Below, one piece after another: positions 21,801 to 57,250 of a stretch of DNA of 64,000 nt. Below the pieces are notes generated by a model that made no database searches, was not told the origin of the DNA, and worked only from the letters and a program-made list of their open reading frames with translations. The stretch is taken from contig OX344754.2 in the NCBI GenBank assembly GCA_947034885.2, forward strand, positions 22,338,501 through 22,402,500, in the 5' to 3' direction. The translations under genes were made by a program, and so were the position numbers. How positions within the stretch are numbered: the first letter of the stretch is position 1; the number at the start of each line of letters is the position of its first letter. The stretch comes from Thuidium tamariscinum. Its lineage: Eukaryota > Streptophyta > Bryopsida > Hypnales > Thuidiaceae.

Positions 21801-21886
21801 ATCGCTATCGACATCCTGAATCCATGTTTCCGGAGTTGAGAGATATGACCAGTAGCTGGAAGATGCCTGCTTATGTTGTTGTTTGA
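18886..21886 (+). CDS. Microbial-type terpene synthase-like protein, gene 2
   Basis: Exon 1 is 18886-18976 (MAQALSSFSGAEV...), exon 2 is 20781-21886; the phase-1 intron of 1804 bp has donor AATG|GTAAGC and acceptor TTACTCAG|GG. Product 398 residues. DDLFFD (about 132-137) is the first metal motif, NDLFSYHKE (about 289-297) the NSE motif, with the sensor Arg 46 residues before it in DMRIGNVGGR and an RY pair near the C-terminus. Exon 2 has the same length as in genes 1 and 3, without indels. It is closest to gene 3, sharing intron sequence as well. Expected role: metal-dependent cyclisation of a prenyl diphosphate. Substrate and product cannot be predicted. Confidence 0.93.
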
Positions 21887-26349: not shown

Positions 26350-26863
26350 CAACCTCAAAAAAGACCTAAAACTGCAATTCAAGCTCTGGTTGAAAATCAG
26401 TTCTGGCCTTGATTGGAAATACTGCACCTATACATGTTGGCAATTGGGTGTGGTTGGGTGTGGTTGGTAATTGGTGCCCCAACCTCAAAAAAGACCAAAA
26501 AAATGCAATTCATGCTTTGATTGAAAATCAGTTCTGGCCTTGATTGGAAATACCACACCCATACATGTTGGCAATTGGGTGTGGTTGGGTGTGGTTGGTA
26601 ATTGGTGCCCCAACCTCAAAAAAGACCAAAAAAATGCAATTCATGCTCTGATTGAAAATCAATTCTGGCTTTGATTGGAAATACCGCACCCATACATGTT
26701 GGCAATTGGGTGTGGTTGGTAATTGGTGCCCCAACCTCAAAAAAGACCAAAAAAATGCAATTCATGCTCTCATTGAAAATGAGTTCTGGCCTTGATTGGA
26801 AATACTGCACCCATACATGTTGGCAATTGGGTGTGGTTGGGTGTGGCTGGTAATTGGTGCCCC
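26350..26863. repeat. Tandem array, four units of 121-131 bp
   Basis: Units begin CAACCTCAAAAAAGACC at 26350, 26480, 26611 and 26732 and end in AATTGGTGCCC. Within each unit a 10 bp GTGTGGTTGG piece is itself repeated once or twice; unit 3 has one fewer, which explains its 121 bp length. The copies differ by only a few bases, so the array is young or homogenised. A 201-codon minus-strand frame crossing it is a by-product of the repeat. Confidence 0.93.
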
Positions 26864-26948
26864 AGCCTTTCTGCTTGGAGGATTTGGAATCATACACTGT
26901 TTTGTGTGCTGGAATTGTTGGTGGGAACTTTGTTGCACACTGCCAAGA

Positions 26949-29919: not shown

Positions 29920-32900
29920 ATGGCCCAAGCATTGTCTTCCTTCTCTGGTGCTGAAGTTGCATCTCATGTTCAAGTCCCTGCCAAGGATGCCGGTGTGCAG
30001 GCTTGGAATGGTAAGCCTCCAACTTTCTCATGTATTGGAAATTACAGAATACATGTTATGTGCTACTGTTACTGTTATAGCTTCCAATAGATTCTACTTC
30101 ACCTTTGAAATTTGTTGCACAATACAGCAACAAATTTCAAAGGTGTGCTTTGAAATTTGTGAAATGCTGAGCAGATTGTGTGTCTCAACAGTTGTTTGTT
30201 TGGTTTTTGTTTTTGTTTTTTGACACAAATAAAGGGTAACCTTTACTGCAGGGAGAGTGTCTCAACAGTTTCAGTCCAGGCTCATATAGCAAACATTTTT
30301 CTGACATGTATGTGTACTTAAAATGCAGAGTCAATGAGAGAGAGAGGATTGGCAGTATAATTGTTAGTATACTGTAAACTCATGAAAATGTGAAAAAAAT
30401 ACTTATGTAGTATTCAATAGGTAAATAAATGTAAGTGGAATGATCAATTTTGGTTTATAATCTCGCAAGTCAATATTGGTAAGGGTACTAGTAGTAAAAC
30501 CAACCTTATGAATCTATGGTTGTTCTAGGAATCATTATTTGTAACTTTAAGAAAATCTACGAATTATGTGATGGTCTTAGTTGCATTCTAGACTAGATCT
30601 TCACAATATTAGATAGCTGAATTACCTCTTTGACTTGAAGAGGTCGAGGCCAAAGTTAGACTAGGATCCTAAATAGGGTCCCAAAAAACACACAACAAAT
30701 AGGATTGTTCTCAATTAGTGAGTTCCAAACTCTCAACCAATGGGTCTTTGCAAGAAAGATCGACTAGTACTATTTTGTATCACACTTGGAACATTAAAGT
30801 TGTCATCTACTATAACTTTTGAAGCATGAACCCAATTAACTTGAGATTATTGTTGAAGATGTTTAACACAATAACAATGAGGATCCTTGTTTTTCAAAAA
30901 CTAAATTTTTTTAATTTTATATTTAAATTTAAATTTAGCTAATTCATCACACTTTACAGTTTTTGGGGGCGTTTGTACTAGGGAATATCCAAAATTCATG
31001 ATTTAAAGCTGAAACTTTTATGGTGTATTTCTACACTAGGCAAGCATGCATTTACCAAAGGGAATTTAAAAAATATTATTTTAATTTCTTCCATATGTAT
31101 GCTAACAGGACTTCCTTGTGCATGCAATTTTGAACATTCAAGATAGTTTTGAAATCATTCTTTTAGTGAAATCTCTTCATCAAGAAGTTCTCTTAAATTG
31201 ATAATTTTTAGTTTTTAGAAATTGAATTCTCCTATTTTTTTATTAATTAAAATGTTAAAGTACTTATTTTTATGAAGTTTTTCACTTTTCTAGTTCACCT
31301 ACTTTGAGAATTTCTCTATGCTTTTCCTTCTAAGGGTAACTTCTTCTTAAAGGTGTATACATCAAACATTTTTTTTTGCATTTTCTTAAAACTATTTTTC
31401 TAATTATACTATACTTCCTCCAAAAAATTCATGAGTACTATCCAAAATGCTACAAAAATTGTGCAATCTTTCTTGCTATGACTCAAAAAAATATTGTTTG
31501 ATTTCTAGAATTTCCTAATACTAGACCCTATTCTATCAAAAATGTACTAGCAAAAGTCATTAATGGATTCAAAATAATAAATTACTTTAAAACCATGTTT
31601 GTGGGCCTTTTCATCTTAAATTCATCATATTTTTCTACAATCTAAAAAAAAAGATTGTAAATGTAGGATTATGTAGTTCTTGATCACCAAAGTTGACAAT
31701 CATTATGCAATAGTGCAATTTTTGGTACCCATAATCCCTAATTAGTTGCATTTTAGATTTTGTACTAATATGTCAAGAATCTTTCATTAAAAAACAAGTG
31801 CCAATGAAATACAAAAACATTCATTCTTTACTAATGAACATGAAATTAATAACTTGTCTTGTTTTAAATCAATTCTAAAGACCCAAATATTGAATTTGTC
31901 TTGCTCAGGGACCAAGATTTTGGAGCACAAGGATCCAATTTCACCTATTAAGCTTTCATCCACAGTTAATGATCAGATTCCCTCCTTGCTCTCTGTAATC
32001 ATTGATGGCCTCCCACCGTTGCAAATGTCCAAGTACGTGAATGAGGCTGAGAAGCGCTTGCACCAATATGTTGAGCACTATCCGAATGTCACTTCTTTGG
32101 TCTCCTATTGTCGTGTAGGCCTTTCTTATGGAAGCTATGTCCACCCTGGAGTAATTAACGTTGATCGTCTTGTGGTGGTTTCCCTTAATTATGCAGTACT
32201 ATTCTTGTTGGATGATCTCTTTTTCGATTCTCCAGATGTGAATCTTCAAGACCAATATGGCATTAGCCATGATGTTTGTAGGAGTCCCGAGAAAAGTCAA
32301 GAATATCTTGACTACTTGGATGCAATTTTCAAGCAACAAGTGCAGCCACGCAATCTTGCTCCCTTGATTGAGACCATGATGTCGGAGTTAGGACGGGAAA
32401 CATTGAAGTTGTCCAACCCTGACTGGTTCAATCATTACGTCTCATGTGTCAAAGAATGGCACCACACAAGTGTTGATAGCCAAATTGATATTATCCAAGG
32501 CCGTGACTTGTGGGTCCAAGACTTAGACTCTTATATTGATATGCGTATTAGGAATGCTGGTGGGAGTTTTGTTCAATTGCTGGCAGAGATTGCAAATGAT
32601 ACCTACATCCCAGGTGCATGGAGGACAAACCCGTATATGAAAAGTTTAACCATGACAACTTGCATCCATATTGGATGTGCAAATGATCTCTTCTCCTACC
32701 ATAAGGAGAGCAAGCTCGAACAAAACCCTCGCAATTTGATCACCGTGCTCACCAAATGTGAAGGGAAGCCTTTTGCAGAGACAGTGCAAATGGCAATAGA
32801 CTTGACAAACAAATATGCTCGTGCCATCATGGATTTGGAGGCTGAAGCTTCAAACTCTACCTTGCAAAGTCATTTGCAAGATGTCTTAACAGTCATTGCT

Positions 32901-33014
32901 GGAAATATTTACTTTTGTGCCATGGACTCTCGCTATCGGCATCCGGAGTCCATGTTTCCAGAGTTGAGAGACATAACCAGTAGCTGGAAGATGCCTGCTT
33001 ATGCTGATGTTTGA
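29920..33014 (+). CDS. Microbial-type terpene synthase-like protein, gene 3
   Basis: Exon 1 is 29920-30010, exon 2 is 31909-33014; phase-1 intron of 1898 bp, donor AATG|GTAAGC, acceptor TTGCTCAG|GG. Product 398 residues. DDLFFD (about 132-137) and NDLFSYHKE (about 289-297) are kept, as is the sensor Arg 46 residues before the NSE. Changes near the active site set it apart from genes 1 and 2: DMRIRNAGGS where the others have DMRIGN.GGR, Cys instead of Phe two residues before the NSE Asn, and DSRY instead of DYRY before the C-terminal pair. It is open throughout, so probably expressed, but product profile or activity may differ. The intron has a local inverted repeat at about 30090-30155. Confidence 0.92.
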
Positions 33015-39305: not shown

Positions 39306-39321
39306 TTAACCCCTCACAGCC
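39306..39321. repeat. Left terminal inverted repeat with TTAA
   Basis: TTAA followed by CCCCTCACAGCC. It is the exact reverse complement of 54271-54286. A 16-base reversed match this far apart, starting at TTAA and CCC, is unlikely by chance next to a piggyBac transposase. Confidence 0.78.
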
Positions 39322-39367
39322 CTAGCCTCGATGGCATCACGAGGACGTTTTAAGAGTAGGGTACAAT

Positions 39368-40370
39368 TTAATCGGTGCAACTGTTTACTAGGCCATTTTC
39401 TCGACTCAGAACTGAGGGCGCAGGGATGAAGAAGTTTTCTATTAGTAGCGCGTGGACGGAATCTCTAAGCACATTTGAAGACGCCGCGATGCATGGAGGT
39501 CCTCTTGATTGAACGACAAAGTACATGATTGCAAGATTCATCCCCGAATAAAAACAAATACTTTCTAACACAATAACATCATCAGAGTCGGAGCTTTCAA
39601 AACTTTTTTTATTGCCGAATGTGAATGAAAACAACAATGGTCTCTGACCTGAAAGATCTGCAAAAGCCAGTAATCACGAAAAGGGAAACAACCTATGAGC
39701 TTACAGCCGTAGTGCATGGAATTACAATAAGAAGCCTACGAAGGAACTCCCGACTACAAACATACTAACAAAACCTCAACTCGGAGAGCGATATAAGCAA
39801 AATCCGCCCATGCAGCAGCTTCAACTCGCTCCGCATAACCTACTAACATAACTGCGACAATCCAAAAAAACACCAAAACTGCATCCAGTTCATCAACTAC
39901 CTTCAACCGATCCTCTTCTAGCCCTACCATAATCTTTAGCCCCAATGTTCAAAATCTCATTATAGAATGTCGGAGACGCTGACCTTTGTAGATACAACAT
40001 CCGACATGTCCTTGCCAAGAGCACCCTCCTGATGACGTCGAGACTTTCCTCCACTACGGCTCATTGAACCTAGGGACTTTGCAGAGGTTGATAAGATAAA
40101 TGCTACACACATAAATGTGAAATTAGATTACTGAGATAAGCGCAGAGCCCATTTTCGACCTGTATGAGCCTTCACAAAACAAGGATCATCACACAAGAAA
40201 ATTCCACAAGCCCTGCACCAACAGTTCTATCTCCTCTTGTAGATCTTGCAACGACGTCTAGCTTTCGGGTGGACAACACTATAGTGGATCATGTTTGCGT
40301 TGGTATTGTGCGGGGTGCACGTCACAGGGGGAGAAATCAGCAGCTGCACTAGCTCTATAGCGATGCTATA
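39368..40370 (-). other. Unrecognised stretch inside the composite element
   Basis: A minus frame of 89 codons (39368-39637) has ordinary composition and reads SDSDDVIVLES near its start, but no family is recognised. The rest has only short frames. It may be the 3' part of the transposase unit or captured DNA. Confidence 0.25.
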
Positions 40371-42698
40371 GTAGAAGCTACGCCGAGTGAGTTGCCGACC
40401 TCCTTCACCACGGGCTTATTGATTTGCTTTGTACAGAACCCAGGCGTTTTGCAAGGACGAATCTATAGTAAAAAAAGAAATTTGTGCCACCATTTATGAG
40501 AATGAAACTGGACACAATAGTCCTGCCTCATTTGGTCAATAAGATCCACTCCTTATATATATTGTTGATACTCAACTTGTTGTGGGGTTGTAGGGATTGG
40601 TTCTCGGACACCACGTAACCACCGCATAGCTATTCCAGGACCAACTGGATCTGCGGAAGTACTAAGGAAACTCACAGGCTTGGAATCAAACCAAGTCGTC
40701 GTGGCCATGCATAAACTGTCATGCATTTGCCAGAACAACATTTGACCGCAGGTGCTCATCTCTTTGAAAACCAGTCAGAATGGAAGAGTACCCTATTCTA
40801 CCGCCCTTTACTATTCCTGTGGCATAAATGCCTTGCTGTAGGAACGAATCAAATAACAAAGGACTTGTGAAGAAATTGTCGCATACAATGACATGCCACT
40901 TGTGGCCTAGCTCCCTTGTCAACTCATGGACAACACGCTTTCCTTGCCCTTCCTCAGTAATACCTCTATCTTTTCCCATATATGGAAGAATGTTATAATA
41001 TAGCAGCTTGGGTTAGATACCAATGTCCACACCTTGAAGCCATATCTGGTGGGCTTTGCTGGCAAGTACATACGACATGGAAAGAACCTACCACGAAAAA
41101 CTATCATTATCTCGTCAGTGGTAACATACTTCTCACAATTGAAGAGCTCACGGGACGAGGTTACAAAATGGTCTAACAACCACCTGACCTTTTCTAATTT
41201 GTCAAATGAAGCATTGTTTCTATCATGAGTAATTTGTGTGTTGTCAACACAATGAAGACAACACAAAATCGACTCAAACCTATGTCTCGGGATATGAGGC
41301 CACAACGCCAAAAAAGATTCCTGCGCCAATAATCACAAACTACAAAGGAGCCCTTCAAACCCATGAGAATGACAAGGCCAAAGAAAGCTGACATTTCTAT
41401 GACAGACACGTCCTTCCATCGTGGCCCACTATTCAAGCCAGGTATACGCCCCCTACACCGTGGGTCTAGCAATTGCGTGCACAACTGCCTAGCATACAAG
41501 TTCGTCTGAATTACTACAACTTCTACAGTGACATCATCCCACTAGAGTCCAAAAAAAGGAAGCACTGCATTTACAAGTGCTTTGTGTAGCGTTGCGTGGG
41601 CCCAGGGCAAGGCCCTATAAACGTGGACCGATTGCCAACAAGGGTAGAGCACGCTTGACCCCATTTTTCATCAGCATAGCGATGTCTAATATCTTCCACG
41701 GCTAATTTACGTTCCCGAGTCAAATGTGCAAACTCCTCATAACGTTGTAGATCCAACGACTCTCCCTCAGAAAACCACTCATCCTCACTATCAAGAAGGA
41801 AGAAGTCACAATTTTCCTCGTCTAAAGAATTATCTGCAAAATCTTGGTATTCTGCCATCCATGATTCGTCTTGGGAGTCGCTTGTCCATACCTCGTATCT
41901 TGTCAATGGCTCATAAGTATCGCAGTCGACAGGTTCGTGAAAGGAGATAAATCGGCATGGTTGGCCAAGTGGTGTGACCTGTCTTTCTTTAACAACGTTC
42001 AAGGCTGCACCAGACCCGATGATTGATTGGGAATCCTCGCTCCTCGGCATTTGATGCTGCAACCTTCCAATGCTACCATCATGGAAAGGTGATGGGGCAT
42101 GGTAAGGTGGGCAAGGAGGAACTGTAGTTGTATATGGCCGTGGCAGAGGGTGGTGAAGAAAGTCCAAGGTTTTGTAGTCTGCTTGGGCAACCTTCTTCCA
42201 TCCAATAGCCTCGCCAAACTCGACACCGTACCAATACACACCGTCCTCAAACCATCCGTGTTGCACCTCTCTCATGAAGTCCTGTAGATCACCGTGTTGA
42301 GTAGGGTCATATCCGAGGACATACAAGGGCACCCACACTTCTTCAGGCAAGATGTAGGTAGGATTCGAGGAATTGTGGCCTCTCGGGACGCAAGCTCGTA
42401 GCGGTCTCTGCAATGGCCGTGCCCCGGACAAAGACGCGCTTGCAGCCAAAGTTGCATGTTCAACGCAAAGACGGTCTTTTCTGAAGTGGGTCCCCGATGA
42501 AGGACAACGGGAATCTTGTCCAAGTGCTGGTTCCACTAGCAGTGCATTGGTTGCCAACTCGGTCACTGCAGTAACCCAATTATCAGTACGTGCTGCGTTA
42601 TTAAAGGCTGCAGTAAGATTCAGTACTCGCCCATGCTCTCGCTGCCGCTCTTCTTGTCTCTGTAGTAGTGAATTCCTTGGTGTTTGGATTGCCTGCAT
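40370..42698 (-). pseudogene. piggyBac-type transposase, broken
   Basis: Minus strand, read from 42698 down. An open first part (42698-41571, 375 codons) has acidic stretches (DSEDEWFSEGES) but no recognised domain. Then come pieces in shifted frames: NLYARQL...VIEMSAFFGLVILMG, then HRFESILCCLHCVDN and KVRWLLDHF, then TTDEIMIVFRGRFF (first catalytic Asp region), then VCDNFFTSPLLFDSFLQQGI with ATGIVKGGR (second Asp region), and GVDLIDQM near 40545 (third Asp region), followed by KWWHKFLF. This order matches the DDE_Tnp_1_7 domain. At least three frame changes separate the parts, so it is inactive as it stands. An intron could explain one break but not all. Confidence 0.85.
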
Positions 42699-43080
42699 TG
42701 GGGACAGAGGAGAGCGAGAGGGGACAGGTGTTTTTCTACATCCAATTGGAGGAGAGCGTGGACCTCGTCCCTATCGTGCCCTTCGATACACATGAGACTT
42801 CCATGTTGATCTCGTGAAGTATTCTTCCCATAAATCGCAAGCCCCTACATCTTCATCAACCAAATGTAATCCTCCACAACTTGGACATGTAGTGGTAGAT
42901 TGAGAAGGCTTCCTTTGGCATAGCATTGGTGGAGATGTTCAATTTAGGAAAATTTGCCGTGGAATCCATTGTTCCCTTGCAGGGCCCCGTCCACCGCGGC
43001 CACCGCGCCCTCTTCCTTCTATTCCTCGTGTAGTTGGAGACAATGTAGGAGGGGGACAAAGTAACCGATCTTCGACAATT
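42699..43080 (-). other. Possible 5' part or leader of the piggyBac gene
   Basis: A 75-codon minus frame (43083-42856) is Arg/Trp-rich in the middle (RRKRARWPRW) but unrecognised. Its place just upstream suggests a leader or N-terminal exon of the transposase gene. This is weakly supported. Confidence 0.2.
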
Positions 43081-43141
43081 CACTATAACAAAACATGGTA
43101 AAAAAAACCCGTAATGGAATATCCATTACGGGTTTTTTTGC
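43081..43141. repeat. CACTATAACAAAA end followed by perfect hairpin
   Basis: CACTATAACAAAA at 43081 is like a CACTA-superfamily terminus. It is followed by a hairpin whose 18-base arms, AAAAAAACCCGTAATGGA and its inverse, are separated by 3 bases (about 43101-43139). A further TCCATTACGA lies at about 43160, like subterminal repeats of CACTA elements. It could be one end of the element that carried the TNP2 remnant at 50-52 kb. I did not find the matching opposite end. Confidence 0.5.
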
Positions 43142-43169
43142 CACCATTCTGTACAGACATTTCCATTAC

Positions 43170-44943
43170 GAAGTTTTCTTGATTTGGAATTAATGACCGA
43201 CTGTCGATTGAATTTTGCAATCATTTTTTTCTAATGTTGTGTTCACAACTTTCTAATTGGTTGCCTTTAATTAAGTTTGCACTTGCAGTAAACAGAAGTT
43301 GAGGATTTTTTTAGCTTAAATCATGTTGCGCTCCCCTTCATATGCATATGTTTTTATGTATGCAATAATGCTGGATCTACATGTCGTAGTCAATCAATGT
43401 AATCAAAGTACTATGTCTAGCTTCAAGGGCATGCATTCCTCTACAACTGCAATTGACTGTGCAATCATGCCCTACGCATTGCATATGATGTAATGTTTTT
43501 GACTACGACTGCCACACACTCCTACATAGAACTTCATATATACAGATGTCATACACAACGGACAGGTACATACTCTATGCAGATCCACATGACTGCAAAT
43601 CAAAGCAACTACATATACAGAACACATCTATCTTGAAGAAAATCAAATACATTTCTCAGCTCGTACATGCTACTGTAATCAATCCAAGATGTCGTCATCC
43701 AAGCATGCAATGACAAAAATTAATCATGCGGACATGTTGAATTGGGTGTAAATTCCATTAATGCATGTGAGCGCCTATATAGATACCTATACCTCAACTT
43801 CATGTAATAGAGGACTGCAAGCATATTGCACTTGCACAAATTATCTCAACCTACAGCTTCGAAAGTACTGGAGTCACCTGTTGCACATATAACAGAAGTC
43901 CTCAATACCTACTTGCTAACGCAGTCCTTCCAAACGACATTTCTTAGTTCCAGATGATTCACTACATACCTCTACACAAGTATCAACGGATTCCCTCATG
44001 ATGACTTCTATTTCGCACGGTCAAAATTCCTGATCACTAGTAGAGTGCCCTCTTACTGTCAATGTATTTCCCGCTATATCCTTAAACGCCAGTGACATTA
44101 GTAACGCTCTACAAAAGAGTCCAACCTGGAACGCTGCAAGATTGACAACCGTCTTTAGAAAAAGGAAACCTCAGATCCTATGCATATGAATCCATTGTTA
44201 AACGTGGCAGGATAAGCACCATTTCCAACAACCGCTAACACCAAAACTCTCCACGTGCTACTTATAGTGCGACTTTGTCGACTACTTATAACTTAGCTTG
44301 CACTCTAATTTATGGACCTCACAACTCTGTAGTCCTTCCTATAGCCCCTCCACACGTCTAAACAACGTCCACCAACTTAACATTTACTTAATTCTGTTCT
44401 CCTCAAATTAATGTTAAGCAATTCATTCCTCGTCGGTTTGTCACATTCCAATGACTCATTACAACAATACAGTTTTCATTACATTCCGAGCAACTAACGT
44501 ATAACACATAATTCACTGTTAGGTCGTTCATCACTTGTGCGAGTGTGCGCTTTCTCGGAACCACACTTGAGATTTCGGAAATTGCCTTCCTAAGGCCAAT
44601 ATCTTACTCCACTTCTTTGACCTCTACCCGCAAGGAAACTAGATAGCCTTCCCAGAATCTTGGCACGCTGCAATCAATTAAACACATTTTGCTTGTTCAC
44701 ATCACCCACTGCAGCAGTGATCTACAACACTTGCATATACGGAGACCGACAAGAAATCCGCCACTACTCCGTTGTAGTTTTTACCCTGCAGTCTTCCTTC
44801 TCTTAGTCTCCTACACTTGAGACACATCAACTTCTCTAACTACAAAGTTGCATTCCATTCGCCCCTATGAATCATAATCACAACATATTTGTTCCAAACT
44901 TACTGTTGTCCCAAAATGAAACTTCCTCGATGTGAGGAACTCT
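43170..44943. other. Gene-free stretch inside the composite element
   Basis: About 1.8 kb with frequent stops in all frames and a more even base mix than the AT-rich flanks of the composite. I see no domain, tandem repeat or RNA gene. Confidence 0.4.
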
Positions 44944-45676
44944 GGGTGATTGCAAGAAAGGCCTCCCATTTTTTGTCTCATTTTGAATAGTACTCACAAT
45001 TTTTTCAGGAGTACTATTTAATTAGAAAAACAATTTTTAAAAATTGTGAAAAATAATTTTCATGAATATACCTTTAAGAAGAAGGTACCCTAAGAAGGAA
45101 AAGTTCAAGAAAATTCTCTAACTAGGAGAACTAGAAAAGTGCAAAATCTCATGAAAATGAGTACTTTCACATTTTAATTTGTAAAAAATAGGAAAAGCAA
45201 TTTTAAAAAAAACTAAAAATTGGCAATTTGGGAAGGATTGATGATGATGAGATTTCACCAAAAGAATTATTTTGAAACCATTTTTGATGTTCAGAATTGT
45301 ATGCGCAAGGGGCCCCTGTTTGCATCAATGTAGAGGACATAAAATAATGTTTTTAAAAAAAAAATTTCGTCAACTTATAAATCTTTAGTGTATAAATATA
45401 CCATACAAATTTCAAGTCTATATCATTAATTTGGGATACTCCACAGTACTAAAAACCCCTAAATTGCAAAGTGTGACAAATTAGGTAAATTAAAATTTAA
45501 TTAGAAAATGTTTTTTGGAAATTTATGAAAAATAAAGAATTTTTTTATTATCAAGTTGGCCATCTTCAATAAAAATTTCAAGTACATTGGATCAATACCC
45601 CAAAAGTTATAACCAATGGCACAAATGTCACTTCCATTGTGACGCCAAAAAGGACAGCCCTTTCTTGCAATCACCC
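44944..45676. mobile_element. MITE with GGGTGATTGCAAGAAAGG ends
   Basis: The 18 bp GGGTGATTGCAAGAAAGG at 44944-44961 is perfectly inverted at 45659-45676, with CTCT directly outside both ends (44940-44943, 45677-45680). The 733 bp interior is AT-rich and has no transposase. A partial relative starts at 58975. Its AT-rich content contrasts with the host composite element, showing a later nested insertion. Confidence 0.8.
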
Positions 45677-46199
45677 CTCTGTTCAAGTCACCGAAACACC
45701 TACTACTCCTATCAGTCACGGACGTCCGATTTCAATTGAATTGACCGGGCTTCATCTCCTGCAGAAAAGAAACATTTGTTCATATACAGAATACACGATT
45801 ACTTGACATTGTGCCGCGCACATGTACTTCTCATACAATTAAAACAACTATGCTCACAAAGTCCGTCACCTACTCTGCGAGAAGCTATTATCAATTCCTT
45901 TACCTCATAAACAATTTCACCGTGCCAAATTATAACGATAAAGCACAACTGAATTCACAGGACCAGGATACGGAAGTGGAATACAACATGTCCACCGATT
46001 TGCTTCCAATCTTTATAAAAATCCTTCTACTAGAGCCGCTAAACCAGTTGTCATCTTCTACGCTCCCTTGTGTGCTTACAGATCTGATCGTATTCTTTGA
46101 TGTCTCCACGAACATAGACATCCTCGCCACCACTATTCATGTCAACTTGTGGATGGCAAGTTCGAATGAATCATGAATTCGTATTGATACTTCACAGGT

Positions 46200-48885
46200 T
46201 CATCCTTCGAAGATTGCAACTGCAGTAAATGAATATGCAATTTTAGAGAGCTCTGAGCTATGGGCGCCTCTTCTCACATTGTACTTGACAACCAAGTAGT
46301 GAGCACCGATTGGACCACGGATGCCGTAATGATAAAGCTCTAGAGCTATCTTTTGATTTCCCAATTCTTTCAAAACAGGAGTGAACATGAGTGAACAATG
46401 ACCATGGAGCATCCAGTTCATCATTGTAAATAAATAGTTGGCACTCACCTTCATTAGCATCAAGTAATAGTCGCTCATATGCATCCGGAATTTCTCGATC
46501 GTATCTGAATAGATTCATGCAACCACATCAATATCAGGAGATATTGGAATACTTTATGGCATTCTCAAGGATGTGAAGATAGATCCATAACTATGTAACC
46601 CTTCCATTGTTACGAATGCTAATAAAAAAGTTATAGCACCAGTAAATGGAAACTATGAGGCCCCACTCATGGGAGTCATCCGACAGAATTAAGCCAGGGC
46701 CCACTATGTGACATACATGCATACTGAAGATCAATAGATTTAAGATAACAGCATACCGATCAGTGTAATGTAGGTTCAAGTTTGAACGATCCAATCTCAT
46801 ACCAAGGCCTACAACCTTGTTTTTGATCTTCAAGTAAATGGCTTCATCAAGTTGGATGTGAATTACCAATTCATTAGTTGCTAACTCAAGGTTAGTCCCA
46901 AAACTCTCCTTGTAAAGGTTAACAGGAGCATGTCTAAATTGTACTTGGATCTTAGCCCTGCCAAAACCATTTCAAATTCGTCAAGTTCTTTTTCCTTCAA
47001 ATGATTCTGACAATTTATTAACACTACACTTTTTGTTATTTCCATTTGTCAGATACTGAAGCACATATTCTTTGATCTAGAAAAATCAACAATCCCTGTC
47101 AATATGAACTTCACTGAAAAGGTGCACCTTTTTCTATGAAGGGCCTTGCTAGCCTTCATCAGAAATGGAACCCCTCCGAACGTGCATTATCAGTAAAAAG
47201 AGAAGCTGCGGCAAACGTGGGAGTAAGACTACTGTTGGGCACGATTTTATCATCTACATAGGCAGGAAACTTCACTCCTCCCCGGTTGTGTCCTTTATAC
47301 TGTCCAACCACTGAATTTTCAACATCCAGTACCCTCATTGACCTCAGAACCTTCACTTGCAAGGACAAAACATAGCAAAAAGAATACACATAATTGAAGT
47401 GACCTCAATACCCCGGATAATTTATCTTATTAGTGCATGTAACATAAATTTACCGAGGTCTCACTAATTATAAAATAATTGTAGTATCGCAAGCTAAAAT
47501 ACTACTGCATTGTATTAATTTCCAAAACTAAATTTGTAATAGCACTACTTTTGTGACAACATTAATTTGCAGCCTCACTTATAAGATAATCAATATTTAT
47601 ATAATGAAAATCAATTACTTTAATTTTGCCAAACAGAAGGCTACTAAGAGGAAATGTGTGACGCACCTTCTCATTTTGTATGTCTTCAACTTCCAGACTC
47701 ACCGACAACTCCATGGCAAATTGTGCCAACTTTTGAAGAAGACGATTATGCATAGTGTCTTGAATAATCCCATATTTATCAAAATACCTGCATATTCCAC
47801 CCAGGAAAAATACAATCAAGCCTCTAGACATCCAATAAGCACTTTAGCCTCATAGATACCACAGAAACGTAAACACTACAAGTTTCATGACACTTCCAAG
47901 AGCAGGTTCTTTGCCGATTACGTTTCAGGTGAAGTAATAATAAATAAGGTCAAAATGCATTGCTCATATGATAGTAGAAATCATTACCCGCCAATCATGT
48001 CTGTCAGAGAAAATGAAGTCTTCAGAGAAAATGAGTTGGACATTTTTGATGTATTGTGGGGACCACAATGGTTGGAAAACAAGATTTGAGGATCACAAGA
48101 CTGACAAATTCTCCACCAGCTCTTTCCGAGGTAATGGTCGATTCTGCAAGGATAAACAAGCTTTGACAGAAATTAAGCAAGTGATGAACACTTCAAAATA
48201 AACCAATAAACTCAATGCTCTCACATACTCTCAACAAAAAGTAAAAATAAACTATATGTGATGCATGCATACAAAACGAATATTCAGATTGGCAACGGTG
48301 TTGAGTATAGGATTGCAGAAACCTACCGATAGATCTGGTCTTCCTTCAAGTACTTTTTTAAGCTTGCTGTCAGTTCTGCAGAGGACTTTGAACCCCGACC
48401 AAATAGTTTTTCCACAATAACAGTATAACACGGATCCAACCATTTCCGGAAGCAGTAAGATTGGAGGACCGGGCAGCATCCACGAAGACATCAAGCAGGA
48501 TAGAAAGGTAGACCAGTTGGTTAGCCACACTGTCGCCCTTATACAACAATTGCAACAATCACTTTTCTATACAGTGCATAGACAGAACAACACTTGAAAT
48601 CAAAATATGGGAGTGCCGCTAGCTTCATGTTCGACTCTTCTGCATTAAAAGTTTTGAGATATTTCAGTATGGAGAGTGCACTAGAGAAACAAGAATGACA
48701 AACACACTATCAAAAGAGGACATAAACCTCATGCATGTGAAGCTTTTTAGAAAGCTCTCCAAATGACTCCTCAAAGTTGTACTAGCTGGCATGATAAAAG
48801 AAATGTTTCAAAAACTCTTCTTGCTTATCACCATAATTTTCTTTGCCAACGTGAATTGCACTAGAGTGGATCACGTGTAATCGGG
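46200..48885 (-). pseudogene. G6PD: Glucose-6-phosphate dehydrogenase, plastid-type, broken, introns kept
   Basis: Minus-strand exons in correct order: HVGKENYGDKQEEFLKHFFY (about 48860-48740); NGWIR then [19 protein letters not shown] and KEDQIYR (about 48540-48310); [25 protein letters not shown] (about 48155-48010); [18 protein letters not shown] (about 47800-47690); [26 protein letters not shown] (about 47350-47120); [30 protein letters not shown] (about 46960-46750); [14 protein letters not shown] to RGPIGAHYL (about 46510-46260). These fit the NADP-dependent enzyme that starts the oxidative pentose phosphate pathway. Splice borders (CG|GTAGG, TTGCAG, TTCAG) are still visible, so it was copied as genomic DNA. 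Lesions include TAG at 48782-48784, TGA at 48093-48095, one-base losses near 48120 and 47175, and small insertions near 48415 and 46385. The N-terminal exons were not found. Confidence 0.88.
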
Positions 48886-50116
48886 TTGTACTTAAGAGAC
48901 CTAGGTTTTAGTCATATACGATGAGGTCTTCAGGCATCATCAACTGCTGACCCTCGACATCAAGAATCCACTAAATAACTAATAAATATGTGGACCACCA
49001 CAAATAACTTACCTTTGATAAATTTGACAAGTAACGGATCCTGATGTTGCTTCCTGCAACATCTCATCAGTTATTTTGCTCCGAGCGAAACCAATAACAG
49101 TAAAATACTACAACCAAATAAGGTTGTGAGAAATTAATTTAAAACATTCACAAAGAAATAATAGTAGATAAAACTAGGCAACACCCACTCACTAAAAGCC
49201 CAGGAAGGAACATGAAAAATTCGATAACCAAAAGTTTCACACCATTCACTAGAATCATTAAGTTAGAAAAAATCCAAACAAATTGAAGAAATCGTTTGAT
49301 TAATTTATGACACATAAGAGCCCGTAATTAAATTGCAGCACGACTTCATCTCTAAAAAATGCAGTTCTGAACCTTAGGCAAGCAACCCTCACAGTAGAGA
49401 CCAAGTAATGCATTCAATTGCATTATGACATCTTGTACAGGAAATATTGCCAGTAGCACTAGAACAACATAAGCATTCAACAAATTCCAGTCTATAAATG
49501 GAAATTCTAGACCTTCAAACCCTAACTACTTCGAATACCACAACATTCCCTGTGTTCCTTCCGAAGTAAGCTACAATGTTGACTTCTACTTCATTGCTTA
49601 CCAAACTTTTTACTTGTGCCGTCATCAACGTCTACCACAAGAAAAAACGTCATACTAACACTTGTCAGCATCATTTCGACAACTACGGAGCACTCTTCCT
49701 TGCCCAGGTCTACAAAAATCGTTTAGTCACGATTAGTGGAATCCAACAATTCAGAGCATGCAGTTTTTATTCTAGGATTTCCTTCAGCGACTATTCTTCA
49801 ATAAACAAATTTACTACTTTCCATTCTCAACATTCCACGCTTTCGTGACACCAAAAAAAACGTCCAAGGTTTAGGCCTACAGCTTTATCAAGTGCAATTA
49901 CCATGTCCTTCTCGGCAAATACCATTTCAAACCTAAACCTACAGAACTTGTTAGAATCCCACTTTTGGCCTTACCAAACATCTGAATACAAACTACTCTA
50001 GCCTTTATCGCTGCAACAACACTTAAAATTCTGAAGACCTAGAAGGAATTTCATTCTGCTTAAAAACTCACAGTGATGAATATCGCTGGACACCTTCTAC
50101 GAGGGTTATTCTCCCC
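48886..50116. other. Unassigned stretch between G6PD and TNP2 remnants
   Basis: It may hold remnants of upstream G6PD exons, but I could not read any with confidence. A 90-codon plus frame at 49576-49848 has no recognisable features. Confidence 0.3.
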
Positions 50117-52372
50117 CTATCTGCGTACTCCACGGCGCCTAAGCCTGCCCCGACCCTGCACTTGTGGCCGCTCTCCGTTCATAAGCGTGTTCAAGCGAGC
50201 GATTTCTGCTTCCGGAACAGCCTCGCCATCCAATCGAATTATTGGTCGGAATTCGGGAGCATTCAAGTCCATAGGTAGGTTGAGTCCACCATAAGCATCA
50301 GAAATCCCCAAAATTTGCTCGTCTTCGGCATCGACCACTCGTCTAGACCTTGCCTCCTTCTGCAGCACTACCTTCCACCCTGGCTGCCTCCAGTCGTCTA
50401 TAAAAAAAACCTATGCACATTCAACACTCCAAAGAGTCATTTTCTCTCTTCATTTCAGAAGCCAAAATGATAAATAATTAATGCAAAACACACTTTGAGC
50501 AACAATCCCTGATTCCCTGTTACTCTGTTCGTTGCGTTCTCTTTATTAGTCTTCACTCAATGCCAAACCCTACCCTTCTCTTCTGCAACTCTTAAAAAAA
50601 CGAACAATGAACGTGTTGACATGATTTGAGGCAATGTCACTGAAGACAACATAATTTCACTCCAACACAGATGAAAATTCAATTCTCTTAACACAATAAG
50701 GGCCACTAAAACACGAAAAGTAACTAATAGACTTCCCTCATCCTCTCTTCTCAAATAACGGCCTACTACTATTTTTTTGTTAAAACTAACCTGCCGAACT
50801 GTTGCGGGTTAAACGTAAGGTTCCCTTGCCGCTGCAATTCTATCATTAAAACGAACTGTCGTGAATCCATAATCATCCACCCTTGTTGAGGATTGCTCTC
50901 CGTCGGTGTTTCGTATCCAAGAACCCTGCATCACTATTCTTCTTCTAGCAAAGTATCGGACCACTATAATATCCTTCAAAACCCCAACCATACTTACACC
51001 AGCAGTGCGTCCGTCTTCAGCGCCAAAAAAACATGCAATACCGTAGTCTTGCGTAACATATCCAAATTGAACGCCATCTTCGAAAACCCTATAGTGATTT
51101 CCATATGCCCACATGTGCTTGTAAGATTCGGCTTGCACGCTCGGTAATTCGGACAACCTCCGCAACTCAACATCGACAGTTGTTATTCCTTCTGTGTTGA
51201 TGAGGGATGTTGTGTAATTAGCGATCCACTCCACGAAGTCTAGGAGATCATCCCAAAGGTGAGCCGGGTAATTATATTGTTCCCTCCTTGACATCCCTCT
51301 CCCTAAGGCATGCCTTCGGTACAACTGCCGCTCCCTTTCCAATGACTCATTTTCTTCATTGTAGATTCTGCAATTCATTATCAAATTTATGAGCAATTTA
51401 TAATTTAAAAAAAATTCAAAACTTTCAAAGGTCATTGATTCAAATGACAATAATGAACATGTAAATACCTCCAAGGCTCTGTTGTTGCGGTAGAATTCCT
51501 GATGATCCAAGAATGTATTGTACGACGCTCTTCAGGGGTCAACAATTTCTCCTCCATGCTACCCATCAAAACTTCTCCATTATCTGCAAGTTCTTCATCA
51601 TCGTCCCAAACTCTTCTTTTCGTATGGGTATACAACTTAAAATATTCTGTACAAAATCCCAAAGCCTCCTCATACATGTACGCATTGGCTATACAAGCCT
51701 CAGGCCTCGATCTCTTCCGAATATACCTTTTGAAAAAGCCCATTTGCCTCTCTATAGGATAACACCATGCATTTGCAATTGGGCCACATTGTTTAATTTG
51801 CTTGGCCAAATGAATTGGCAAATGCCACATTACGTCAAAGGCAGAGGGTGGAAACCAAACCTCCAATAGGCAAACTGTCTCAGCTGCATATACCTCCAAA
51901 CTCTCCAACTCTTCAGGACTAAAAACTTTTTTGCACAACATTGTAAACAAACGTCCCAATCTGATAATAGCCATCCGTGGTCCAGGGTTCATAAGGTGCC
52001 TCAAGCAAACTGGAAAAATGAATTGTAAGAGGATATGATAGTCGTGAGACTTCATATTTCCTAGTTTATTCTTCAAAATATGCTTTTTCATATTACCACA
52101 ATAACCAGTTGGAAGTGATATTCCTGCAATTTGTTGTAAGAGAATTGTTTGTTCTTCTTTCGTTAACACATATGGAGCCTGTGGCTTCACAAAATTACCG
52201 TTCCCATCTACATCCCTTCGAACCCATAAATGTGGTTTAATTTGCTCTTCCTCCATATCTCGACGACATGCGGCACTGTCTGAGATGCCAAATAAAAACT
52301 TTAACATACCTTCACATATGTTTTTCTCAATATGCATTATATCCATCAAATGTCGAAAAGGGAGTTGCTGCA
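50117..52372 (-). pseudogene. CACTA (En/Spm) TNP2-type transposase remnant
   Basis: Minus strand. The exon from 52372 starts after a CTGCAG acceptor with QLPFRHLMDIMHIEKNICEG, the standard junction before the DUF4218 domain. The domain continues with KSHDYHILLQ, FPPSAFDVMWHL and CYPIERQMGFFKRYIRKRSR, ending near 51430. The next segment (51510-50809) carries a DUF4216-like pattern: YGNHYRVFEDGVQFGYVTQD, then VGVLKDIIVVRYFARRRIV and DDYGFTTVRF. A final piece from about 50410 reads DDWRQPGWKVVLQKEARSR, the usual C-terminal element. The Transposase_21 catalytic core that should precede the first exon is missing, and a frame change follows EPYV near 50810. So it cannot make an active transposase. 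Confidence 0.85.
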
Positions 52373-52554
52373 GTACAACAACAAAACTTAGTCACTATTG
52401 CCTTAACAAATATTTCTTACTATACATGATTGTATTCATTGCCGGTTTCATACAAATTATTATTTTCATTTAAACTTGTGCTAAGAAGTGCTTTGCTTCA
52501 CAATCCTAATATGCTCAACTGTATAAAAGGTTTTTACTTTTAGATTTTAAAAAT

Positions 52555-53300
52555 TTATAATATCACCTCAACTAATTTGAAGCTACATTTGTGACCATTA
52601 TTCACTATTAAATACTCCCTAAAAAATATTTTTAATTCAAATTGCAATATTGCAGCAGTCGAATGACGAGTGCCTCTTCTACAACCTCGTCCCCGTCCTC
52701 GAATTTGGGTTGTGAATGGAGAATTCGACTGTGAATTCACGTAACCTCCAAATTGATGATCCTGCCTACCATGATTACGCTCGCCTCCCCTTGCGCCCCT
52801 TTGAGAATGTCGTAGGGACTCTGTGGCATTGAAATTACTTCCCTTCTCATCAAGTTGTTGAGTTGCCACCCTTATCTCCTGCGAATTCAAAATTTCCTCT
52901 AGTATGTGGTTGAATTGACCGTTGATGTCTCCTTTCAACGCTTAGTGCATTGTAAGGGTGGCCCGCTCCTGACTTTGGTGAAGCTGCGGAAATTGTTTGG
53001 GAGGGCCCAGAAGATGATCCACGGACGTCGTCCCCATGCTTTTCTCCTTTATGGTGGACCGTGCTAGCATCCGGGTAGCAGTTGATTGCCGAGCTAGATT
53101 CTTCATTAAGGTATTGTGGCCAATATTTAGTCCTCATAAATGTATTCAGGAAATTAGGAATCTCCTAGGATGTCCCTCGGGGTAAAGATGAGACCACCCT
53201 AGCAACCTCGCAATTTGGCGCCTGCAAAGGTTTCGCCAATTGTGAGTTGTTGGGTAAGTAGGCCACTGGTGTTTCTCTACAGGGCGAGCTAAATTGAGCA
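52555..53300 (-). pseudogene. Unrecognised coding-like remnant upstream of TNP2 fragment
   Basis: Minus-strand frames in sequence read VEKHQWPTYPTTHNWRNLCR near 53280-53220, then WPQYLNEESSS (53137-52850), then an RGRGRGCRRGTRH region (52938-52555). They need frame changes to join and match no family that I know. Basic, Gly/Arg-rich ends suggest a nucleic-acid-binding protein, possibly the companion ORF of a transposon. Confidence 0.3.
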
Positions 53301-54270
53301 AGTAATCCTCCTGCAAGCAATTTACAACCTTTTAGGCAATGACTAGGCTCTCTGAACTGCCGAGCGCCTAATAATATAGCTTATCTTATACTGTGAAGAC
53401 TTCCTCCGCTGCCGCTCTCCCCGCCCACAAAGCAGTTGTCATGACCATGGCGCTGGAACACAGGAAACGAAACACCGTATTGCATGCACTCACAATCGTG
53501 GAGAAGGTAGGGTGCACCGTGGTGTAATTTCTACACTTAGTGGCCCCCATAAACCCTAAATGAAGCTGAGAATTCCGTATTCCACGATGAGGAGCACCTC
53601 CGATCATCATACAGAACCAAATGTGGAGAGGATGTTTCACCCCACGATGAGAATTTCGTACTGACAAAGCCCCCATGTCTGCCTATTGAAATCGTAAATG
53701 TCATCACAATGCAGCCCTAAACTTGAGTTGAAGCAAGCATATCTGGATTCATGAAATCGTGCACCGTGCTAGCGTCGCCGTCGCCACCCTTGAGCCCCTT
53801 GGAAAACCAATCCTCTCCAACAAAATGCACTCAAAGCCTCAACGCCCTTGAGTGCACCAAACAGATGTCTCCACAAGGCCGTTGGAATTGTGCTTGTGTC
53901 GCTATCAAATAGCCCTACGCCCCCACCTCGCACGGAACCCTAAACCACCACGACAATCACTCCAACTCCAGACGCTAACCTCAATGGAGTACTGAATTAG
54001 TGTGGGCGAATCCAAGGCTAACGGTCTGTGACCGGTCCTAGCAGGTCAAAAATCGGATAGGCCCTCACAACCGCCATGTCCGATTTTTGGGTGTTTGTAT
54101 GCAAACGCCAATTTCACATGTATGGAGCATGTTGTTTCTTGATCAAACTGCACATTCACATACCCCTTCCCACATTGCACATTTCAAGTTTCCACCTTAT
54201 CTTCATTGCTATCACAGTTCGGGTGCTACAGCGGTTCTTCAATCCACAGGGGCCAGATTTTGGCCTCTTC
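53301..54270. other. Right subterminal region of the composite element
   Basis: A 96-codon minus frame (53386-53676) reads ALWAGRAAAEEVFTV at its end but is unrecognised. Near 54050-54090 a hairpin with AAAAATCGGA arms lies about 190 bp from the right terminus. No other gene is seen. Confidence 0.35.
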
Positions 54271-54286
54271 GGCTGTGAGGGGTTAA
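54271..54286. repeat. Right terminal inverted repeat with TTAA
   Basis: GGCTGTGAGGGG then TTAA, exact inverse of 39306-39321. It sets the right border of the composite piggyBac-type element. Confidence 0.78.
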
Positions 54287-57250
54287 TCCAATAACACCGG
54301 TAGTACCAATTTGTAGTATTTGGATGATGATGAGGTAGTTTGTAGAGAGATTGAAAGCAATTTTTCATCCATGTTTTGTTTGTTGACCTTTCATGGAGGG
54401 TTATGAAAAGTACCTAATTGACTTTGTAGTCTTCGTAGTGTCTTCATGGTGTCTTCTATACTTCACACATATAATTGTAACTTCATCTCTGAAACATGAA
54501 CAAATTTTTTTTATACATATCTAGTTCTAAAATGGCAACAAACTAATTCAATGATGGGCAATGAGGCTTGAAATCAGTGGTTATAGGTCCGTCCTTTAAA
54601 GGTTAATTAAAGAAAGGTAACGTGTGTTGTAGGATCATGAGACTCTTTAACTATGTGGACCATTTGAGAGTTGAGACACCCTCTTCTTCTCAAGGAGGAA
54701 AGAGAGACCAGGGACTTCATGCAAGTTCGTGGCGCGCAGTGGATACGAGGGGAACACACACAAATCGTCTGCGTGGAAATTAATCATCGATCTGGATTGG
54801 ACCTCACGGGGAATTTTAGACGAAGCCTTGATCGAATGTGTGCTCCAGCGATCTCCTCCGAACTTAACAATCTGGCTCATCCAGACAAAGGAGCAACGAA
54901 GCCGAATCAGTCTCTGATTTTTAGAGGCCACACGTACTATCCGATCCCAGATACCCCCCCGAGTGGGATTGATTGATGCTAAGACGACGGAACACAAGCA
55001 AACTCGGAACAACGAGAAGATTGAAACTAAGCACAGAAAAAACTGTAGACTGTCTGTATAACTCTAGATTGAGAACACGGTTTCATTTCAGTTGCCAAAT
55101 ATTTGACATAAGACATAAGTGTTCGATATTCAGGTGGAAGTGTGCAAATTAACCCCTCAAACTGAATAAAAAACGTAAGAGCCCTGAGCAATGAAAGACA
55201 TTTCCTAACCAGTAGCCCCGTGCTACATTTGAGAAGCAATGCTTGAAATGATAACTAAGAAACTTGTCGATGAACACCAGGGGAAGGAGCTTCAATGCAT
55301 CGCAAGTTATTTAAGAGTCCCAGACCGAAGCTCATGAATGTTCTGTCGAGGACGGATTTGCGCTTCTCAAGATCGGTAGCTGGTTCTGAACCATTCCATG
55401 TCTGAGTGCAGATGGGCCGGGGAGAAAAGATGCACTACTACTAAAAAATTTCAGCGTATGAACTCTGAAGAATCAGAGAAATTTATTGAATCAAGTAAAA
55501 CGCAAGTTAGTTAGAATACTAAATTCTAACGTACTTCCATCAGGTTTCGATATATCCACTATAGTAAATTCTTGCTTACTGTAAATTGTACATTCCAGAA
55601 GAGGCACTGCAGACATTGAACATGAATTTACAGCTTCATCTGAAGTTAAGGTTCCAGCACGGCAAGCTGGATCGTTTGAAGTATTGTCTCTCTCAGTTTC
55701 GTCTTAGCTTCCGACTCAACACCAATTAATGCAAGGCGTCTTCATAAGCTCTTGAATCCTGATCATGGGGTTCATTGCTCGTTCACCCTTCTCCCAGCCA
55801 GCCATGAGATTCTAAACCGATGCATGAATTCGTTCAACGCCGACTGAATTGTAACGACAAACGCAACCGCACAAAAGAGTGATACCACACATCTTCTCTC
55901 CAATCGATGAATCCATCATGGCTTGGGTCCCGCCCTTGTGACGTGGACCTCAAGCTACAAGCCAGATTCTGGCCTTATTATTTTTTAACCCTTCAAAGGA
56001 CCTGACTGGTGATGACAGATGACTGTGGAAATCATTCATTTTGATACAGTGCAAATCTTTGGTTTACAAAAATTCAAAAGGAATCATTCGAAGTCAAACT
56101 AGTGTTGAAGATCTCCTGTATCTAGGAGGAAGAGTTGCAATTCTTGTTCCACATATAAAGATTCTATGTAGTCCATTGGGCACAAAATGTTAAACAAAGC
56201 CACAAGTAATACCATACATCTTTTCTCTAAACACCTATGATGGGCAAAACATGTAAGTGCAACAAGCAAAAGAACCTATGACATACAAAGCATGGAGGCA
56301 CGACGTGCAAAATCCCCCCCATGATGAGCAAAATCCCCGTGATGTGCAAACCACGTAAGAATCAAGTACAAACTAACCCTCCATGATACCTAAAACTTAC
56401 TCCTATGACAAACACCTAGGTATGGATCCTATGCATCAATCCATGCTCTAATTTCTTTTTAAATATAGGGATTTGGCTACATTTATAGCTACAATCAATG
56501 TCTTGTGTGATAGTGATGAAAAATGTCAACATTCCATTACTTTAATACTTTGAACACTTCAAAACACGCAATCTAAAATCTAAATTTGTCATAGATTTTT
56601 GAAATCTATATATTCTAGATGTTTGAAATCTACACCTAGTCAAGATGTTTTAAACAATATAGTTTGAAATGTATACCTATTATAGATTATTTGAGATCTA
56701 TAAGAGTCTTAGATGTTAGAAAATTAGTCTATACATTTCTTGGATGTTAGTTTTTATTTTTGATTGCATGTTCTGAAGTGTACAAAGTGTCAAAGTAATG
56801 AAATGTTGTCATTTTAATGAAATTTGCCATTGTTGTATTAAAATTTAAAATAATTATTTCAATTTTTTTGTGATTTGTGTTTTTTATTTTGTAATTTGTA
56901 ATTTTTTATTTTATAATTTGTAATTTTTATTTTGTGTTTTGTGATTTGTATTTAGCATTGCAAAGACAACTCTATAAATACACACATGGTGGTGGGAGGC
57001 AAGACAAACAATGTGGGATTTGTAAATTAGTTCATAGTTTAAAAAAAACCAAAGTTGATGTCCTGCAGCAGGACGACCTAATGCAAACAATGTTTTGCAG
57101 AGTCGCTGTTCTGTGCAGCTACGCGATCAGCCGAGTCCCATGATCCAAGATGGATCTAACAACGGCCAACTGGGCTAGGCCCACTTTCAATTACAGGATT
57201 TAACGTCGCGCCTAACCGTGCCCCCTGGAAATTCACCTAAATTTTTACTA
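54287..57250. other. Repeat ends and unassigned DNA
   Basis: 54420-54612 looks like the right end of a TTAA-family element (GGTCCGTCCTTTAAAGG then TTAA), matching 62480-62660. Around 55985, TTAACCCTTCAAAGGACC looks like a left end of the same family. Between them is about 1.4 kb of balanced composition with a 121-codon minus frame (54647-55012) that I do not recognise. 56870-56960 is a TAATTTGT/ATTTTG-rich simple repeat. No gene is supported. Confidence 0.4.

What the first reader, a model, noticed from the sequence alone, without database searches (positions are those of the whole stretch)
39306..54286. A 15 kb piggyBac-type element carrying a captured intron-containing G6PD gene and a CACTA remnant
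A perfect 12 bp inverted repeat next to TTAA on both sides encloses a broken piggyBac transposase and foreign cargo. Known piggyBac elements are usually a few kb, and gene capture by piggyBac in plants is, to my knowledge, not commonly described. The G6PD copy kept its introns, so it was captured as DNA, not by retroposition.
Basis: partly seen in the sequence, partly recalled or inferred. Interest (0 to 1): 0.88.

Follow-up and report, generated by a model that had tools for sequence, protein, structure and literature searches.

The report
Gene-carrying CACTA nested inside broken piggyBac
The 15 kb unit is an ordinary-sized plant piggyBac transposon whose own transposase gene was split by a second, damaged transposon of the CACTA type, and it is that second transposon, not the piggyBac, that holds the dead copy of a sugar-metabolism gene.

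Summary
TTAACCCCTCACAGCC at 39306-39321 and its reverse complement at 54271-54286 enclose decayed piggyBac transposase, an intron-containing G6PD copy and CACTA transposase. The ends are real: the same genome (363 Mb, 19 contigs) holds thousands of near-matches, seven piggyBac copies of 5.1-6.4 kb with such ends, and a 1.3 kb copy sharing both subterminal regions.

The interpretation must change. Related piggyBacs have 0.6 kb where this copy has 10.5 kb. The extra DNA splits the transposase gene: N-terminus at 53466-53006, the rest from 43049 down to 40131. It begins at 43081 with a CACTA terminus that recurs genome-wide from exactly that base, and CACTA-family DNA flanks the G6PD copy on both sides. 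The G6PD copy (46141-49411) matches a gene on contig C5 (88.9%, introns included); it lacks the exon 1 part with GASGDLAKKK and has exon indels. A MITE lies at 44944-45676.

So this is nested transposons with a gene fragment carried in CACTA DNA, a known kind. Nothing shows that the 15 kb unit moved as one. More striking in passing: this plant genome has a very large piggyBac population with long open transposase frames.

The parts
39306..39321 (+). left piggyBac end: TTAA plus 12 bp terminal inverted repeat
54271..54286 (-). right piggyBac end: 12 bp terminal inverted repeat plus TTAA
   Evidence: 7 of 12 genome matches of 53450-54286 (self included) end at exactly 54286
40131..43049 (-). piggyBac transposase, all but its N-terminal part; several frame changes and stops; the three aspartate motifs are still readable, in different frames
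   Evidence: 42750-43049 by tblastx to L063, L066, L067, E 4e-23 to 9e-25
53006..53466 (-). piggyBac transposase, N-terminal part, cut off from the rest by the insertion; stops inside
   Evidence: (tblastx to L063, E 6.7e-58; 71% over 100 aa)
53661..54286 (.). right subterminal piggyBac DNA, 83% identical to the 1.3 kb non-autonomous copy at C1:13123454-13124761
43081..52391 (-). 5'-truncated CACTA element inserted in the piggyBac transposase gene (secure extent; the right edge of the insert lies somewhere in 52391-52947)
43081..43154 (+). CACTA 3' terminal repeat, CACTATAACAAAACATGG..., containing a palindrome at 43101-43139
   Evidence: (42 of 52 rows, self included, start at this exact base)
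44944..45676 (.). 733 bp MITE with 37 bp inverted arms (81% complementary), inserted among CACTA DNA; up to 99% identical to other copies
46141..49411 (-). G6PD copy with introns, from inside exon 1 to about 92 bp past the stop of the C5 reading frame; pseudogene
50117..52391 (-). C-terminal half of CACTA transposase (TNP2: DUF4218, DUF4216 region); the upstream Transposase_21 exon of the C10 relative is missing here
52392..52947 (.). unassigned join between CACTA and piggyBac: AT-rich to 52650, then an RG-rich open frame; holds the right edge of the insert
54287..54623 (+). flanking TTAA-ended repeat family that begins at the TTAA shared with the piggyBac right end; its far end was not mapped

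Best explanation
A piggyBac element, originally about 5 kb, lies at a TTAA site between DNA found nowhere else in the assembly on the left and another TTAA-ended repeat on the right (shown). A CACTA element, or the 3' part of one, then entered the 5' coding part of its transposase gene and split it (position shown; transposition as the route inferred). The CACTA segment carries a piece of the host G6PD gene copied as genomic DNA with introns, lying between the CACTA transposase and the CACTA 3' terminus (shown). The CACTA most likely acquired it by CACTA-type gene-fragment capture (inferred). A MITE later inserted (order inferred from its 99% identity to other copies). The CACTA is now 5'-truncated, the piggyBac transposase is decayed and split, and the G6PD copy is a pseudogene. 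The whole is a dead nested block that looks like one 15 kb element only because the outer piggyBac ends survived.
For: Relatives complete between TTAA ends measure 5421 (L063), 5308 (L066), 6352 (L065) and 5094 bp (L064, L068, L069, L070). L063 aligns with the window at 40042-42347 and 42550-42620, then at 53117-53445, 53988-54081 and 54248-54286, in order; it has 605 bp where the window has about 10.5 kb. Transposase N-terminus at 53466-53006, E 6.7e-58; the rest from 43049, 31 bp short of the CACTA terminus (E 4e-23 to 9e-25 against L063, L066, L067), down to 40131. CACTAYAASAAAA occurs once in the window, at 43081 (0.02 expected). Its first 63-91 bp, mostly 72-75, recur genome-wide: 40 of 134 candidates scored, 52 rows, 42 (self included) starting at exactly that base. 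A complete small CACTA, L074, has this terminus at both ends (72 bp, 91.7%) and CTT on both sides. L075, a CACTA on C10, is collinear with 43081-43282 (116 bits), 43731-44297 (82.5 bits) and 49459-49589 (44 bits), against maxima of 28.3, 28.3 and 25.4 in 20 shuffles each, and has no G6PD (26.8 bits against 31.1). G6PD source: C5, one alignment at 88.85%; divergence 9.4% in anchored exons, 9.8% elsewhere.
Against: The CACTA 5' terminal repeat was not found and the right edge of the insert is not pinned (52391-52947), so a clean CACTA insertion with a 3 bp target duplication is not shown: ATT precedes 43081, CAT follows a TAGTG at 52943, and that TAGTG lacks the 72 bp repeat. The clues to the edge disagree: a G+C step points to 52651, the spacing of the relatives points to about 52.9 kb. 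The nearest piggyBac relatives are only about 66% identical in DNA, so the empty site cannot be read to the base. The RG-rich frame at 52651-52941 is assigned to neither element; it has no other match in the genome. The stretch 45677-46140 shows no match to L075 beyond chance (22.6 bits against 28.3). The order of G6PD capture and CACTA insertion is not resolved.
Confidence: 0.9

Rival explanations
1. One reading: one large piggyBac captured G6PD and CACTA pieces as cargo and moved as a 15 kb unit.
For: Perfect outer ends with TTAA; the same kind of ends occurs on many other elements, so such ends are mobile in this genome.
Against: The cargo sits inside the transposase gene and starts at a CACTA terminus. 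CACTA DNA brackets G6PD. Apart from the C5 gene, only weak G6PD matches (67-76% over 94-245 bp) were found in the genome, so no second copy of the unit is seen; a cut-and-paste move would however leave none.
Confidence: 0.05
2. G6PD was pasted into a CACTA already resident in the piggyBac by double-strand-break repair that copied genomic DNA from C5, without any capture by a transposing CACTA.
For: Single extra copy; sharp edges with no obvious microhomology; the carrier is truncated and lacks a second terminus.
Against: CACTA elements are a documented kind of carrier (PMC8978399, PMC8903248, passages; PMC1947982, abstract). Nothing here separates the two routes.
Confidence: 0.3
3. The two piggyBac ends belong to different elements and the block between them is a chance juxtaposition.
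For: The left flank has no match elsewhere while the right flank begins with another TTAA-ended repeat.
Against: A 1.3 kb copy on C1 has these left and right subterminal regions together between TTAA ends, and both parts of one transposase gene lie collinear inside.
Confidence: 0.03

Closest known systems
piggyBac superfamily DNA transposons
   Same: TTAA target, short CCC-starting inverted ends, DDE_Tnp_1_7 transposase related to solved 6x67 and piggyBat 9c0f
   Different: Larger than its relatives because another transposon is nested in it; in a 1214-codon open frame of a relative (L069) Pfam finds only PF13843 at residues 732-1110, so most of the long N-terminal part has no Pfam match
Pack-CACTA and other Pack-TYPE elements (PMC8903248, PMC13317346, passages seen)
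   Same: A host gene fragment held inside CACTA-derived DNA
   Different: Only one CACTA terminus was found and CACTA transposase remains are still there, so it is not a two-ended Pack element
CACTA elements with captured gene fragments: Chenopodium (PMC8978399, passages) and soybean Tgm-Express1 (PMC1947982, abstract)
   Same: Gene fragments inside a CACTA-type carrier
   Different: Here the fragment lies downstream of the transposase, towards the 3' end (Chenopodium: 5' region), it is one long nearly complete gene, and the carrier is nested in a piggyBac
Giant piggyBac fusions such as Teratorn (PMC6431247, passages)
   Same: A piggyBac-ended unit much larger than usual
   Different: Teratorn is described as an active 41-182 kb element; here the transposase is split and the size comes from a nested insertion

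Membership tests
piggyBac | TTAA target duplication on both sides | tested here: met
   same in 7 relatives and the 1.3 kb copy L002
piggyBac | short inverted ends shared by a family | tested here: met
piggyBac | DDE_Tnp_1_7 transposase with the catalytic aspartates | tested here: met
   PF13843 on two frames; motifs TTDEIM, VCDNFF and GVDLIDQM readable, in different frames. That these hold the catalytic residues is recalled
piggyBac | C-terminal cysteine-rich domain | tested here: inconclusive
   cysteine-rich stretch aligned to the relative; no separate Pfam domain reported for the relatives
piggyBac | intact transposase (autonomous copy) | tested here: not met
   split by a 9.3-9.9 kb insert, frame changes and stops
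CACTA (En/Spm) | terminus starting CACTA, shared by a family | tested here: met
   3' end at 43081
CACTA (En/Spm) | two inverted termini | tested here: not met
   no second terminus above chance in 43300-54290: best local score 21 against 17-22 in ten of eleven control segments; the eleventh (36) overlaps the terminus itself;
CACTA (En/Spm) | 3 bp target duplication | tested here: inconclusive
   CTT in the relative L074; not demonstrable here because the 5' end was not found
CACTA (En/Spm) | TNP2-type transposase | tested here: met
   DUF4218 E 3.8e-31; DUF4216 E 0.018, below cut-off; 61 genome rows from 31 candidates; only the C-terminal half here. The upstream exon with Transposase_21 (PF02992, E 1.5e-60) is in the C10 relative
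Pack-TYPE/Pack-CACTA | host gene fragment between two compatible CACTA ends, no transposase | tested here: not met
   one end only, transposase remains present
Retroposed gene copy | introns absent | tested here: not met
   introns kept at about 90% identity to the C5 gene

The most novel reading that the evidence does not exclude
The genome carries apparently recently active piggyBac families with the same kind of ends, including copies with 1023-1214 codon open frames. The 15 kb composite, with G6PD and CACTA inside, may therefore have been moved, or may still be movable in trans, as one piggyBac-ended unit. That would make it a plant piggyBac that ferries a captured gene by way of a nested CACTA.
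Probability: 0.1. Interest if true: 0.65.

Novelty: new member of a known kind. Interest (0 to 1): 0.35.

Why it matters
It shows how a nested insertion can pass for gene capture by the outer element, and that comparison with other copies in the same genome settles it. It adds a well-aligned case of a nearly whole host gene copied as DNA into a CACTA-derived segment, in what looks like a non-seed plant (inferred from the terpene synthase-like genes; the species is not known). The by-product may matter more: a plant genome in which piggyBac is a large family with near-identical copies bearing long open transposase frames, which would allow piggyBac biology to be studied in a plant host.

Tried and rejected
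Looked for a matching CACTA 5' terminus by pattern over the window (whose output was cut in its middle; the rows for 43-54 kb were seen) and by ungapped scan and local alignment: nothing above controls. TAGTG at 51092 with a matching ATT was rejected because it lies inside the TNP2 coding region. TAGTG at 52943 fits the spacing of the relatives but lacks the 72 bp repeat; left open. Tried to read the exact junction from three relatives by dynamic programming: the best splits ranged over 42898-43088 on the left and 52758-52929 on the right, so no base-level claim. Retroposition: rejected, introns present. Empty site: with joined flanks the left flank matches only itself, the right flank is repeat, and no empty site was found among the 40 of 2126 candidates scored. 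Plasmids (no match) and viral contigs (4 pattern matches, none a relative) gave nothing. RG-rich frame 52558-52941: no other match in the genome. Of the ten piggyBac regions fetched, L071 and L072 were too broken to use for spacing, and L064 and its three near-identical copies match this element only in short stretches of DNA (L064 shown). Ten paper searches: from the titles and abstract starts listed I saw no report of gene capture by piggyBac in plants, but only one search had gene capture among its terms, and that with CACTA, so this is weak. The word piggyBac does not occur in the plant gene-capture papers PMC13317346 and PMC8903248. The fern genome paper PMC6890710 lists 1,230 PiggyBac annotations (passage); in PMC10619864 the hits were 'piggybacking'. 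Most subscription papers are not held.
Full report
WHAT WAS CLAIMED AND WHAT IS THERE. The window is C6:22338501-22402500 of a 363 Mb, 19-contig genome. The terminal repeat is 16 bp including TTAA, perfect, unique in the window, at 39306-39321 and 54271-54286. Inside, all on the minus strand, are piggyBac transposase (PF13843; 6x67 E 1.2e-8), G6PD (PF02781) and CACTA transposase remains (DUF4218 E 3.8e-31; DUF4216 E 0.018, below cut-off).

ARE THE ENDS REAL? Yes. With up to 2 mismatches the 16-mer occurs 1337+1460 times in the genome against 58+50 for the reversed control; 18 exact sites are listed, including both ends here; the commonest variant in the cut listing has CACCGCC. From the rows of C1 and C2 that I retyped from that listing, 26 plus/minus pairs lie within 20 kb: four of 80 bp, fourteen of 966-987 bp, and eight others from 880 to 5421 bp. 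L002 on C1 is a 1308 bp copy with TTAA ends; it matches this element's right 626 bp (83%) and left end (87% over 82 bp, then 77% over 181 bp); the left and right matches meet directly inside it, though it has about 0.4 kb of its own between the two left pieces. Of 12 genome matches to 53450-54286, 7 including self end at exactly 54286.

WHAT THE piggyBac LOOKS LIKE WITHOUT THE INSERT. The search with 39306-43080 gave 46 rows from 33 candidates, all scored. I fetched ten regions. Seven are complete between TTAA ends: L063 5421 bp, L066 5308, L065 6352, and L064, L068, L069, L070 at 5094 bp each; the last three are 99.7-99.8% identical to L064. L067 has one end, L071 only a doubtful pair, L072 none. 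L063 and L066 align with this element at 40042-42347, 42550-42620, 53117-53445, 53988-54081 and 54248-54286, in order; L063 has 605 bp between the anchors where this element has about 10.5 kb; L067 agrees as far as it goes. At protein level the transposase N-terminus is at 53466-53006, with stops (71% over 100 aa, E 6.7e-58). The next part is at 43049-42750 (E 4e-23 to 9e-25 against L063, L066 and L067), and the rest runs from 42620 to 40131 in several frames with stops. The 15 kb size is therefore a normal piggyBac plus an insertion within its own transposase gene.

WHAT WAS INSERTED. CACTAYAASAAAA occurs once in the window, at 43081 (0.02 expected), with a palindrome at 43101-43139. Searching with 43081-44940, 40 of 134 candidates were scored and gave 52 rows; 42, self included, start at exactly base 43081; most of these cover only the first 72-75 bases, two reach 150. 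Seven plus/minus pairs lie 19-28 kb apart; I did not read these. One short pair was read: L074 has 72 bp inverted ends at 91.7% and CTT on both sides. So 43081 is a CACTA terminus. The transposase at 50117-52391 is 81% identical to a copy on C10, and the rows that reach its upstream side stop at 52351-52392. In the C10 relative an upstream open frame of 500 codons carries Transposase_21 (E 1.5e-60); no match to it was found in the window's 52400-53200 beyond short chance-level pieces. No second terminus was found. The CACTA is thus 5'-truncated. The right edge of the insert lies in 52391-52947: a G+C step at 52651 and the spacing of L063 (about 52.9 kb) disagree.

WHERE G6PD SITS AND WHERE IT CAME FROM. 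The best other genome match is C5:18391970-18395221 (11 rows from 9 candidates; besides self and this one, nine rows of 67-76% over 94-245 bp). It aligns in one piece with 46141-49411 at 88.85%. The C5 gene has an exon 1 with GASGDLAKKK (recalled as the dinucleotide-binding motif); the copy begins inside that exon, past the motif, and ends about 92 bp past the stop of the C5 frame. Divergence is 9.4% (133 of 1408) in the exon stretches that I anchored by peptide and 9.8% (180 of 1828) elsewhere, with 23 indels, six of them in those exon stretches. The exons are no better kept than the rest, so the copy looks free of selection; and with its introns it was copied as DNA. The CACTA relative L075 matches 43081-43282, 43731-44297 and 49459-49589 in order at 116, 82.5 and 44 bits, against maxima of 28.3, 28.3 and 25.4 in 20 shuffles each, and lacks G6PD; 45677-46140 gave no match above chance. 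CACTA DNA therefore lies on both sides of the G6PD copy. The edges show no obvious microhomology.

LATER EVENTS AND FLANKS. 44944-45676 is a MITE; the search with 43081-46000 had 5665 candidates, of which 40 were scored; beside self, 39 places match this stretch at 95-99%. A 94.8% copy sits in piggyBac L065. The left flank matches only itself, while the right flank begins, at the shared TTAA, with a repeat (2126 candidates, 40 scored) whose three copies that I read also begin at TTAA (L077, L078, L079).

HOW IT WORKS. The most likely history is: piggyBac insertion at TTAA; CACTA (with or still without G6PD) into its transposase gene; loss of the CACTA 5' part before or after; decay; MITE insertion. 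Capture of G6PD by CACTA is inferred from position and from precedent (PMC8978399, PMC8903248, PMC13317346, passages; PMC1947982, abstract). Repair-mediated copying into a resident CACTA is the main rival. There is no evidence that the block moved as a unit.

NOVELTY. Nested transposons and CACTA gene capture are known; the case is a clean new member.

Noticed in passing
genome-wide; e.g. L069 and L070 (1214-codon frame in a 5094 bp element), C2:31546222, C5:1289005: Very large piggyBac population: 659 candidate PF13843 loci, 116 scored, all 116 over cut-off, none in the 14 control genomes (kind not stated); 11 of the 116 rows show a stop-free match in a 1023-codon frame with scores of 269.4-269.6. 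Looks like recent or current activity.
   Followed up: partly
C6:24893411-24913916, C3:29105268-29125780, C5:14720498-14747001 and four other pairs: Inverted pairs of the CACTA terminus 19-28 kb apart suggest giant CACTA elements; pairing is inferred from positions only.
   Followed up: no
window 13993-15192, 20669-21883, 31791-33011 (+): Three open frames of 400-407 aa matching Terpene_syn_C_2 (E 8e-21 to 1.5e-22), i.e. microbial-type terpene synthase-like genes (recalled as typical of non-seed plants). A fourth similar start at 63474 was seen by eye only.
   Followed up: partly
window 54287 onward: The piggyBac right end shares its TTAA with an abundant repeat; three other copies read also begin at TTAA (two of them TTAACCC), so two TTAA-specific elements may sit side by side.
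   Followed up: partly
window 44944-45676: 733 bp MITE with 37 bp inverted arms and at least 39 other copies at 95-99% identity: a recent burst.
   Followed up: partly
window 26350-26868: Tandem array with 131 bp unit, 4 copies.
   Followed up: no
window 52651-52941 (-): RG-rich open frame between the CACTA and piggyBac parts, no other match in the genome; origin unresolved.
   Followed up: yes
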